From: a virus
IMG/VR virus record: IMGVR_UViG_3300023481_000010
Coordinates: 1-28,035 of that record
Strand: one strand, 5' to 3'
Length of the DNA stretch: 28,035 nucleotides
Numbering within the stretch: the first letter of the stretch is position 1; each line of letters opens with the position of its first letter. Under the pieces are notes generated by a model. It did no database searches. It had not been told where the DNA came from and was given only the letters and a program-made list of their open reading frames with translations. Below, piece after piece: positions 10,546 to 13,992 of the stretch. Position numbers and translations under genes: made by a program.

Positions 10546-11003
10546 CTCAGATTGCCCCCTGTCCTTCTGTCCTTAACCATACCGCACAGCGTGCCACCAT
10601 GCCGAATGAGTCCGTTGGGTCCCCAGTATTTGATACGGATGGACTTGGCCTTGGTGGTGTCCGGCATAAGACTGCAAAGGCCACTAGGGATGGTCTTCTC
10701 TGCACGCCACTGAATAGGGTCCCCTGCCGCCCCATGCCTCGCCAGATCATTTACAGCCTCGGCTAGATCCATATCCTCTGGCCGCAAGTCGCTGCTATGA
10801 GGCGAGAGCTCCAATGGTGGACGCTCGGCTGATGTCAGCCTTGTTCGTCCTTCGCACTCAAGGCAAAGAGCAAACTGAGGAAAAACTGAAGCATCATCTT
10901 CGTGTTCAGTAGTTCCCCATTTGCCAATCCTCTTCACCCTGACGACATAATGGAATCCAACTCTGCCTCCGCATTTCGGGCAACAGGCCTCTTGTCTTTT
11001 CAT
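10542..11003 (-). CDS. Zinc-ribbon-containing hypothetical protein
   Basis: A 153-residue protein with an N-terminal CPKCGGRVGFHYVVR (from residue 8) and CLEC about 35 residues later (47-50), a standard four-Cys zinc ribbon. The remaining two thirds have no recognised motif. The start overlaps the metallopeptidase stop (ATGA) and the stop overlaps the next ATG, so the four genes 11749-9752 are translationally coupled. Confidence 0.65.
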   Translation of the reverse strand: MKRQEACCPKCGGRVGFHYVVRVKRIGKWGTTEHEDDASVFPQFALCLECEGRTRLTSAERPPLELSPHSSDLRPEDMDLAEAVNDLARHGAAGDPIQWRAEKTIPSGLCSLMPDTTKAKSIRIKYWGPNGLIRHGGTLCGMVKDRRTGGNLR

Positions 11004-11749
11004 TTCCCTGTCCTCATGAATCGTACGAGCACGCCTTCCGCCGTGGTTGGGTTGACTCCCTCGACTACGCAGAGGCGCACCTTCTCAGAGAACTTGGCCT
11101 TGGGGTTGGCGCGCGCTATGCGCCTGATGATATCGCTCGGCCGCTCGATGCAGTTGGATGGCTTGCCCACTTCTCCAGGCCGAACTTTCCATCTGGGCGA
11201 AAGGATCGAGCTCCTTGATACCCTGAGCCTAGCCTTGCGTGCGTGCTTTTCTAGCCAGGTAAATCTACCCTGAAGGGTGGGGAGGTATTTTGACAGCAGC
11301 TCGATATAGGTTCGCATGAAGACCCCCCCATGGCCGGCTGCATGAACGTCGCCAAGTTGGTCGCAAAGAAGATGAGCAGTCTCGTGGAGCACAACCCATC
11401 GCTTCGAACTAACAAGGAGCCATTGCACACGTGGGTGTCTGCCGTGTCTAAGTGCGCCCTCTGCGCCGCGCCATCCGCAGGCCCCTCCGCGATTGGCCTT
11501 TGGACCCACTCCGCTTCTCCAGTGGACCAGCTCTGATCTATCCGCATAGAAGGTCCGGCCGTTCAGTTCTGTTCCCCAAGGGGCCCACGACACACCATGG
11601 TCATCTAGCACCTTGTTTACGAAGGCTCTTAGCTCGTCTAGGGAATCATATCGTACAGAGTCGTGTCTCGCGTCCGATCCGAGTAGACGGTCCTCCCATG
11701 CGTAGACTTGTTTGCGTTGCGTGTCGCATGCCTGCTTTACTTTAGCCAC
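11000..11749 (-). CDS. Predicted zinc metallopeptidase-like protein (HExxH)
   Basis: A 249-residue protein starting at GTG 11749, 3 nt after the stop of a small membrane-protein gene. VVLHETAHLL places an HExxH motif at residues 122-126, followed by a third candidate ligand in AAGHGGVFMRTY (H140). This H-E-x-x-H ... G-H-G-x-x-F layout is shared by SprT-like proteins and by small actinobacterial metallohydrolases. The N-terminal 110 residues hold a short alpha/beta region and an Arg/Gly-rich stretch. The C-terminal 100 are basic and may bind nucleic acid (ERPSDIIRRIARANPKAKF). Substrate unknown; SprT-like enzymes cut DNA-bound proteins, but this assignment is inference. Confidence 0.65.
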   Translation of the reverse strand: MAKVKQACDTQRKQVYAWEDRLLGSDARHDSVRYDSLDELRAFVNKVLDDHGVSWAPWGTELNGRTFYADRSELVHWRSGVGPKANRGGACGWRGAEGALRHGRHPRVQWLLVSSKRWVVLHETAHLLCDQLGDVHAAGHGGVFMRTYIELLSKYLPTLQGRFTWLEKHARKARLRVSRSSILSPRWKVRPGEVGKPSNCIERPSDIIRRIARANPKAKFSEKVRLCVVEGVNPTTAEGVLVRFMRTGK

Positions 11750-12213: not shown

Positions 12214-12250
12214 AAAAACAGGCCCGCCTGGCCCCCCGGCCAGGCGGGCC
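12214..12250 (-). terminator. Strong intrinsic terminator after the Ro gene
   Basis: A perfect 13-bp stem (GGCCCGCCTGGCC, 12221-12233, with its complement at 12238-12250) and a 4-nt loop. On the minus strand TG and then TTTTT follow. It lies about 50 bp past the Ro stop codon. Confidence 0.9.
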
Positions 12251-12300
12251 CCAGGTAAGGGCAACAAGAAAGTCAGGTCTTGCTCAAGATGCCCCTCCCC

Positions 12301-13992
12301 TCAGAAGCGGTCGGCGACGAAGTCGCTGATCAATTTCGGTGCTGAGGAGTCGAATCCCGCGATGGATAGCATGAGCGAGTCCTCCGGGTCGCCAAGGCTT
12401 GAGCCGCCGGCCGTCATGGCGCACCACACGACCTTGGCGTTCGGGTTGACCTTGTTGCGATATTCCTGAAGCGCCTGGGAAGGATGTGAACGTCCGGTCC
12501 AGCCCTCGTTGTCCGTGTAGACCACGAAGGCATCGACCCTGATCTTGTGCTTCAGGGCATGCACGAACGGCAACGAGCAATCGGTGGCGCCACCTGCCCC
12601 GATCGCTTCGATGGCGCGCATGGCGTCCTGAGACCGCATCCTCCCTGAAAGTACAAGCGGATATACACCTGGACCCTTAGCGGCAGTTCCGTCCCAATAC
12701 CTTCCGGTCTTACGCTCGTGCGCTCCGCCCTCGTAGTCGAAGGCAATGCATTGAGCATTATCTAACCGAACGTGCGTCAAGGCCATGCCCCCCGCGAGAT
12801 GGAACAGGGGGATCCCCATGGCCGTTCCGCCTCCGTAGCGTGGGTGCATCGAACCTGAAACATCCACTGCAACGAGCACTGTCTTACCGGAGGGCTCGGC
12901 ATCCTTGAGAGCAAGCTGAAAGGCATCATCCAGGGCATCAACAATTCTGGGGTCGGGCGTCCAAGTGAGGTTGCGACCTTGCCCCTTCTCGTAGGCGCAG
13001 CCAGCAAGCATGAGGGCCACTGGGTGGATCCGAGACTTCTTGACCTGCTCGACGTTCGTCAGCCGGGCGATGGCATCATTCATCCGACCCTCAAGCACAC
13101 CATGGGCTTGAAGCTTCGAGAGCTGCCGGACCGTGGCCATCATGGGCATGTTGTCGAACAAGGCGTCAAGCACGATGGGGTTGGAGCTCATTCCGCTCGG
13201 CACACACTCCCAAGGGAGCTTCGTCTGCCGGATATGTGCAGCCAGCTTCTCAGGATCATCGCATGATTGCGCCACGGTAAAGGCCTGAACTATCGGGCCA
13301 TAGTTGCGTCCAATAACAGGCTTGCCGGAAGCCCACTCGTAGAGCAGACGACGAGATTGAATCTCCTCTGCGCCAAGGAGATCGCTCTCAACCTGGGCTT
13401 GCTCAGACGGAGGCTTTGGACGGAAACGGCGCATTACATCGCGCCACGTCCATCCCTCTCGCTGCCGATATTTGACCATCTGATAAGCCAGCTTCCCGAC
13501 CTCTCTGTTGTCGAGCCAGTAGCGGACCGATCCGTTCAGGGAACGCCCGCCACCGCGCATGCCCTTGACCATCTCCAGGAACTGAAAGAGGTGCGTTCCC
13601 GTACGGCAAACAAGCGCCAAGGCGTCTCGCCGAGCCAAGGTAGGCGCTGATTTCTCACAAAACGACAGGGCCATCGCGAGGATTGCGTAGTCGTTCTTCG
13701 GCGCGAGGGCTTTCACGGACACCTCGGCAATGCGATCGATGGTGCGTTCGGGGTCTTCCTTCAGGCAACGACCGACGACTTCAGCGTTTGCGCGTGTGAG
13801 ATCGCCTTCGCCTGCGTAGTACGTGCCACCCTCAGTGCCAAGGATTAGGAAGCGATCGAGCTGTTCCCAGTCCCCCGTCTTGAAAACGTACCCTCCGGCC
13901 GGCCCACGATACATCTCCTTCGCCCGACCGGGGATCGGCTTTGAAGGAGAAGTCGTTCGCGGATTAGCGAGGTGCTGTGCGATGTTCTTCAT
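12301..13992 (-). CDS. rsr: Ro60/Rsr-type TROVE-domain RNA chaperone
   Basis: A 563-residue orthologue of Ro60 (Rsr in bacteria), the ring protein that binds Y RNAs and the ends of misfolded RNAs. The TROVE part has family hallmarks: FLILGTEGGTYY (48-59), CRTGTHLFQF (129-138) and KYRQREGWTWRDVMRRFRPK (174-193). The C-terminal von Willebrand A domain has an intact metal site DVSGS (377-381). Length is normal. ATG 13992 (MKNIAQHLANPR) is chosen; the frame runs 15 codons further to a TTG, but that part lies inside the terminator hairpin's T-run. The gene stands alone between two strong terminators. The region upstream carries four Y-RNA-like units. In Deinococcus, Rsr with a Y RNA steers PNPase; no nuclease gene of that kind is in this window, so a host partner is likely. 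Confidence 0.95.
   Translation of the reverse strand: MKNIAQHLANPRTTSPSKPIPGRAKEMYRGPAGGYVFKTGDWEQLDRFLILGTEGGTYYAGEGDLTRANAEVVGRCLKEDPERTIDRIAEVSVKALAPKNDYAILAMALSFCEKSAPTLARRDALALVCRTGTHLFQFLEMVKGMRGGGRSLNGSVRYWLDNREVGKLAYQMVKYRQREGWTWRDVMRRFRPKPPSEQAQVESDLLGAEEIQSRRLLYEWASGKPVIGRNYGPIVQAFTVAQSCDDPEKLAAHIRQTKLPWECVPSGMSSNPIVLDALFDNMPMMATVRQLSKLQAHGVLEGRMNDAIARLTNVEQVKKSRIHPVALMLAGCAYEKGQGRNLTWTPDPRIVDALDDAFQLALKDAEPSGKTVLVAVDVSGSMHPRYGGGTAMGIPLFHLAGGMALTHVRLDNAQCIAFDYEGGAHERKTGRYWDGTAAKGPGVYPLVLSGRMRSQDAMRAIEAIGAGGATDCSLPFVHALKHKIRVDAFVVYTDNEGWTGRSHPSQALQEYRNKVNPNAKVVWCAMTAGGSSLGDPEDSLMLSIAGFDSSAPKLISDFVADRF

What the first reader, a model, noticed from the sequence alone, without database searches (positions are those of the whole stretch)
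12301..13992. Intact Ro60/Rsr protein encoded by a phage
TROVE hallmarks and the metal site of the von Willebrand domain are all present, so the protein is likely functional. Ro60 homologues have been noted in a few phages, but their purpose is unknown. Here it is a stand-alone unit bounded by two strong terminators and no RtcB, RtcA or PNPase gene is in the window, so it must use host partners or act differently.
Basis: partly seen in the sequence, partly recalled or inferred. Interest (0 to 1): 0.85.

Follow-up and report, generated by a model that had tools for sequence, protein, structure and literature searches.

The report
Phage Ro60 with four Y RNAs

Summary
The Ro60/Rsr gene is real. 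It lies on the minus strand (13992-12304, 563 aa), with both Pfam domains, an intact MIDAS site and a confident model (pLDDT 89.7) matching Ro60-RNA structures (TM 0.85/0.91). The reading as a lone unit is wrong. Between 14587 and 14066, same strand, lie four tandem Y RNAs. Each has the Ro60-binding stem with GGUUAUC, and each 5' arm pairs best with its own 3' arm. The last, Yd, holds a circularly permuted tRNA module: sub-threshold Rfam YrlA hit (E 7.6e-7); un-permuted, ARAGORN calls it a tRNA, 0 of 1000 shuffles. A terminator sits between array and gene, leaving 28 nt, so rsr is probably read through from the array. Such Y motifs flank rsr in 63 of 87 viral loci, almost only in sense. Of 48 virus records with rsr, none encodes PNPase and 3 encode RtcB, so missing partners are normal. 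Most likely mechanism: a Ro60-Y RNA particle that borrows host exonuclease (PNPase), like Deinococcus RYPER; host partner and purpose are inferred. Phage Ro60 and phage Y RNAs were already reported, so this is a new member of a known kind. Side lead: some phages carry the same tRNA-mimic module next to a DUF2828 protein instead of Ro60.

The parts
12301..13992 (-). rsr, Ro60/TROVE-vWA protein, 563 aa plus stop; TROVE about 30-365, vWA 372-559; MIDAS D377 S379 S381 T470 D494
14066..14214 (-). Y RNA 'Yd', 149 nt: Ro60-binding stem (GGAGGCGAGCUGAA...CGGUUAUC / CCGACCCUC...GCUCGCUUCC) carrying a permuted tRNA module, ending in a U-run
   Evidence: MFE -57.6, z -3.6, 0 of 200 shuffles as stable; motif; cross-pairing
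14109..14177 (-). permuted tRNA module of Yd: T arm, 7-bp acceptor stem closed by a loop, D arm; flanking ACUGU/ACAGU form the anticodon-stem equivalent
   Evidence: Rfam YrlA RF02553 40.7 bits, E 7.6e-7, below gathering 69; model R1 67.1 bits (the window is one of its 7 training sequences); un-permuted form called tRNA by ARAGORN, 0 of 1000 shuffles
14296..14366 (-). Y RNA 'Yc', 71 nt, minimal loop
   Evidence: (stem score above all 20 shuffles)
14375..14471 (-). Y RNA 'Yb', 97 nt
   Evidence: stem score above all 20 shuffles; z -3.2
14493..14587 (-). Y RNA 'Ya', 95 nt
   Evidence: z -2.5; the ungapped stem score did not exceed shuffles because its stem has bulges
14021..14060 (-). intrinsic terminator (10-bp stem, 15-nt loop, U5) between the Y array and rsr, 28 nt before the ATG; candidate attenuator
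12214..12251 (-). strong intrinsic terminator after rsr
14224..14289 (-). 66-nt structured element between Yc and Yd without the Y motif; role unknown
   Evidence: z -2.2

Best explanation
The locus encodes a complete Ro60-Y RNA particle: one Rsr ring and four Y RNAs that compete for its outer surface. SHOWN from sequence: an intact Rsr, four Y RNAs with the Ro60-binding stem, one with a permuted tRNA module, and a terminator between array and gene. INFERRED: the array and rsr are one transcription unit in which most transcripts stop at the terminator, giving many Y RNAs per Rsr, with rsr made by read-through. INFERRED from Deinococcus and Salmonella work: Rsr holds each Y RNA by the lower stem; the Y RNA gates the ring, and its other end tethers a host exoribonuclease, most likely PNPase, so that structured or damaged RNA is threaded through the ring and degraded in the infected cell. 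The different Y RNA ends would offer different contacts.
For: Protein. Y RNAs: four sense copies of GAGCUG...GGUUAUC, 0.01 expected per window; all eight 5' arms (upper and lower stems) pair most strongly with their own 3' arm (arms laid out by hand); Yd folds unprompted into the YrlA shape. tRNA module; 9 of 16 pairs show compensatory changes over 7 phages. Context: GGUUAUC occurs 154 times sense against 2 antisense within 2 kb upstream of viral rsr, in 63 of 87 loci up- or downstream. Terminator-like sites within 200 nt before rsr in 13 of 61 viral loci with upstream Y motifs against 1.1 expected. PNPase absent from 48 of 48 virus records with rsr. Precedent: D. radiodurans Rsr-Y RNA-PNPase (PMC4726728); Listeria phage CKA15 has highly transcribed putative Y RNAs within 2 kb of its rsr (PMC12282133).
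Against: No transcript, binding or infection data exist for this phage. Arg191 replaces the Y-RNA-binding histidine, and 28 positions depart from residues kept in at least 85% of homologues. PNPase tethering rests on other organisms; no PNPase-binding determinant was tested here. No convincing promoter was found before the array. The host is unknown.
Confidence: 0.6

Rival explanations
1. tRNA-mimic decoy: Yd, held and stabilised by Rsr, soaks up host proteins that recognise the tRNA elbow or acceptor, such as tRNA nucleases of defence systems or tRNA-modifying enzymes.
For: Near-complete tRNA elbow with 7-bp acceptor stem; many phage rsr loci carry this module (38 of 87 other viral loci at 40 bits or more, counted); competitive inhibition of an anticodon nuclease was proposed for YrlA (PMC7790460).
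Against: The module has no anticodon loop; three of the four Y RNAs lack the module; in Salmonella YrlA was not cut by the tRNA nuclease.
Confidence: 0.2
2. RNA repair: Rsr and Y RNAs act with host RtcB/RtcA to mend cleaved tRNAs.
For: In Salmonella and other bacteria rsr and Y RNA genes share an operon with rtcBA (PMC7790460); jumbo phages carry RNA ligases and some TROVE proteins (PMC7824862).
Against: RtcB found in only 3 of 48 virus records with rsr and not in this record; no repair gene in the window.
Confidence: 0.1
3. Passenger cargo: a host rsr locus picked up by the phage and no longer selected.
For: Long branch and several departures from conserved residues.
Against: Intact ORF, all MIDAS residues kept, high-confidence fold, four Y RNAs with compensatory pairing; recurrent in hundreds of phages.
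Confidence: 0.05

Closest known systems
Ro60/Rsr-Y RNA locus of D. radiodurans (RYPER: Rsr, Y RNA, PNPase)
   Same: Rsr ring fold; Y RNAs with a Ro60-binding stem beside rsr
   Different: Carried by a phage; PNPase must come from the host; four Y RNAs; Arg in place of the Y-RNA-binding His
Salmonella rsr-yrlBA-rtcBA operon and the Rfam family YrlA (RF02553)
   Same: tRNA-like permuted module on a Y RNA next to rsr
   Different: No rtcB/rtcA here; match below Rfam's gathering score (40.7 against 69 bits)
Ro-like loci of actinophages such as PurduePete, Sparky, Sixama, Magritte
   Same: rsr with Y RNA motifs nearby, six of seven with a YrlA-type module
   Different: 34-39% protein identity; the window's tail and exonuclease genes resemble those of proteobacterial phages
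Listeria phage CKA15 (PMC12282133)
   Same: phage Rsr with putative Y RNAs just upstream, strongly transcribed
   Different: Y RNAs there are proposed from transcription, not shown by structure; no sequence comparison made here
Thermus phage phiLo Ro60 (PDB 9l5y)
   Same: phage Ro60 with a solved structure
   Different: Only 18% identity and TM 0.53/0.63 to this model

Membership tests
Ro60/Rsr (TROVE-vWA) | TROVE domain over Pfam cut-off | tested here: met
   107.8 bits against 23
Ro60/Rsr (TROVE-vWA) | Ro60-type vWA domain with MIDAS DxSxS..T..D | tested here: met
   139 bits against 27.7; residues invariant
Ro60/Rsr (TROVE-vWA) | HEAT-like ring closed by the vWA domain | tested here: met
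   AF2 model; TM 0.85/0.91 to 2i91_B
Ro60/Rsr (TROVE-vWA) | Y-RNA-contact residues (K170, H187 in frog Ro60) | tested here: inconclusive
   K174 kept; H187 equivalent is Arg191; the positions in frog Ro60 were counted from the alignment, the role of K170 is from memory
Ro60/Rsr (TROVE-vWA) | binds Y RNA and misfolded RNA ends | not testable with these tools
   needs binding assays
Bacterial Y RNA | Ro60-binding lower stem with conserved motif, next to rsr | tested here: met
   four copies
Bacterial Y RNA | at least one Y RNA with a tRNA-like module | tested here: met
YrlA (Rfam RF02553) | score at or over Rfam gathering threshold | tested here: not met
   40.7 bits against 69, E 7.6e-7; six known phage rsr loci also score below it
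RYPER | complex with PNPase | not testable with these tools
   no PNPase gene in 48 virus records with rsr; host unknown
rsr-yrl-rtcBA RNA repair operon | RtcB encoded with rsr | tested here: not met
   none in this 28-kb record; record may be a fragment

The most novel reading that the evidence does not exclude
The phage makes a Ro60 ring with interchangeable RNA adaptors: four Y RNAs sharing one grip for Rsr but bearing different outer ends, so that one ring recruits several host proteins (one through tRNA mimicry), while the terminator after the array acts as an Rsr-sensing attenuator. An 8-nt stretch of Yd's 3' stem arm (CGCCGACC) can pair perfectly with the terminator's 3' arm, which 12 of 2000 shuffles match.
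Probability: 0.2. Interest if true: 0.75.

Novelty: new member of a known kind. Interest (0 to 1): 0.45.

Why it matters
What phages do with Ro60 is an open question. This locus gives both halves of the particle, intact and compact, so it can be expressed and deleted piece by piece. The survey suggests that phage rsr usually travels with its own Y RNAs but not with PNPase or RtcB, which points to the borrowing of a host nuclease or a host tRNA-binding protein.

Tried and rejected
Single-protein scan of viral contigs found no close relative; the alignment scan did. Rfam at gathering threshold and ARAGORN on the native window found nothing, because the tRNA module is permuted and the YrlA score is sub-threshold. 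Considered that Yd's module is only the junction of two tandem tRNAs: rejected, since no tRNA is present in the window and its two acceptor halves pair with each other; weak R1 hits in tRNA-rich loci may well be such junctions and were not counted. MAFFT of the four full Y RNAs (A1) misaligned them; stems were compared by hand. Ungapped stem scoring missed Ya and Yd because of bulges. Placement of the protein by tree is unsafe: FastTree only, long branch, warning of long-branch joining. No promoter upstream of the array could be named.

Full report
OBSERVATION. The ORF at 12301-13992 is on the minus strand and encodes 563 residues. Pfam gives TROVE (E 1e-30) and vWA_Ro60 (E 1.8e-40). The nearest solved relatives by sequence are human Ro60, frog Ro60 and Deinococcus Rsr. 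All five MIDAS residues are present. An AlphaFold2 model from 43 sequences has mean pLDDT 89.7 and pTM 0.90; Foldseek places Ro60-RNA complexes first, with 2i91_B at TM 0.85/0.91 and rmsd 2.3. One departure matters: the residue equivalent to H187 of vertebrate Ro60, needed for Y RNA binding (PMC11277228), is Arg191 here.

On the same strand just upstream lie four copies of GAGCUG...GGUUAUC at 14580, 14466, 14362 and 14206; shuffles give 0.01 per window. Each copy folds into a stem-bulge-stem. With the arms laid out by hand, every upper and every lower 5' arm pairs best with its own 3' arm among the four, which is compensatory change between copies. The last copy, Yd, carries a T arm, an acceptor stem closed by a loop, and a D arm, in that order: a circularly permuted tRNA. 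Rfam's YrlA model finds it at 40.7 bits, E 7.6e-7, below its gathering score of 69. Put back in tRNA order with an artificial anticodon loop, ARAGORN calls it a tRNA for all five loops tried and for 0 of 1000 shuffles. In seven phages the module's alignment shows 9 of 16 pairs with changes on both sides.

SURROUNDINGS. A terminator with a 10-bp stem (14060-14021) stands between Yd and rsr, and only 28 nt separate its U-run from the ATG. No promoter-like site was found there. The simplest reading, an inference, is that rsr is transcribed by read-through of the Y array. Terminator-like sites lie in the last 200 nt before rsr in 13 of 61 viral loci with upstream Y motifs, the window included, against 1.1 expected. 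Other genes in the window are a helicase, a Cas4-type exonuclease, a Sak4-like protein, a possible single-strand binding protein and tail genes. The nearest tail and exonuclease relatives are in phages of proteobacteria, so the host may be one, but this is weak.

RELATIVES. Ro60 is found in 342 phage records. I fetched 7 of these, 80 viral contigs and 80 bacterial or archaeal contigs. Within 2 kb upstream of viral rsr, GGUUAUC occurs 154 times in sense and twice in antisense; 63 of 87 viral and 68 of 80 cellular loci have at least one sense copy up- or downstream. Twenty of the 87 viral loci have four or more, so an array of four is not unusual. A covariance model of the tRNA-like module finds it at 40 bits or more in 38 of the 87 other viral loci (my count; six of those loci trained the model). 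In the tree, viral and cellular proteins are interleaved, with at least 15 changes of label forced by starred branches, which indicates repeated transfer. The window's own position is unsafe because its branch is long.

PARTNERS. Of 48 virus records with rsr, PNPase (PF01138) was found in none and RtcB in three; the control genomes rang as expected. Many of these records may be incomplete.

MECHANISM. Shown: the parts and their pairing. Inferred: Rsr binds the lower stems, the Y RNAs gate the ring, and a host exonuclease is tethered, as in Deinococcus, where Y RNA links Rsr to PNPase (PMC4726728). Rivals are a tRNA decoy (raised for YrlA in PMC7790460), RtcB-type repair with host enzymes, and passenger cargo.

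WHAT IS KNOWN. Y RNAs in mycobacteriophages are cited in the Listeria phage CKA15 paper, which also proposes highly transcribed Y RNAs beside a phage Rsr (PMC12282133). YrlA in several phages is cited in PMC7765460. Jumbo phages with TROVE proteins are described in PMC7824862. A Ro60 structure from Thermus phage phiLo exists (9l5y). The 2014 survey of bacterial Y RNAs was not held; from memory it reports Y RNAs near Ro60 in over 250 bacterial and phage species.

SIDE LEAD. The array's tRNA module also matched unannotated permuted modules in phages phiM12, KP13-26 and KP13-16, which have a DUF2828-DUF7788 (vWA-like) protein within about 1.5 kb, with no TROVE match seen in the stretches read. 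Among 80 viral DUF2828 loci, six have such a module within about 150 nt upstream of the gene (L183, L191, L194, L195, L226, L257; two of these have the same score and may be near-copies). DUF2828 proteins may be a second Ro60-like family with its own Y-like RNAs. I did not test this further and do not know whether it has been published.

Noticed in passing
L172 1504-1568, L175 1504-1574, L176 1506-1576, L226 2873-2939, L183 2830-2905: Permuted tRNA modules lie next to DUF2828-DUF7788 (vWA-like) proteins in phages phiM12, KP13-26, KP13-16 and several viral contigs, suggesting a second Ro60-like protein family with Y-like RNAs.
   Followed up: partly
L173 1504-1572: Synechococcus phage S-CRM01 carries a permuted tRNA module (57 bits) upstream of SCRM01_174, a 613-aa protein without any Pfam match.
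   Followed up: no
14224-14289: A 66-nt, strongly folded element sits between Yc and Yd without the Y motif (z -2.2); function unknown.
   Followed up: partly
14687-14715: A 12-bp inverted repeat without a U-run overlaps the stop of ORF 14714-15511, just upstream of the Y array.
   Followed up: no
L004 4753-7493; L092, L094, L096: rsr and Y RNAs are embedded in tRNA gene arrays in Gordonia phage Sixama and apparently in some myxobacterial genomes.
   Followed up: no
11000-11749: ORF with a weak SprT-like metalloprotease match (E 0.0097, below cut-off) just downstream of the rsr terminator.
   Followed up: no
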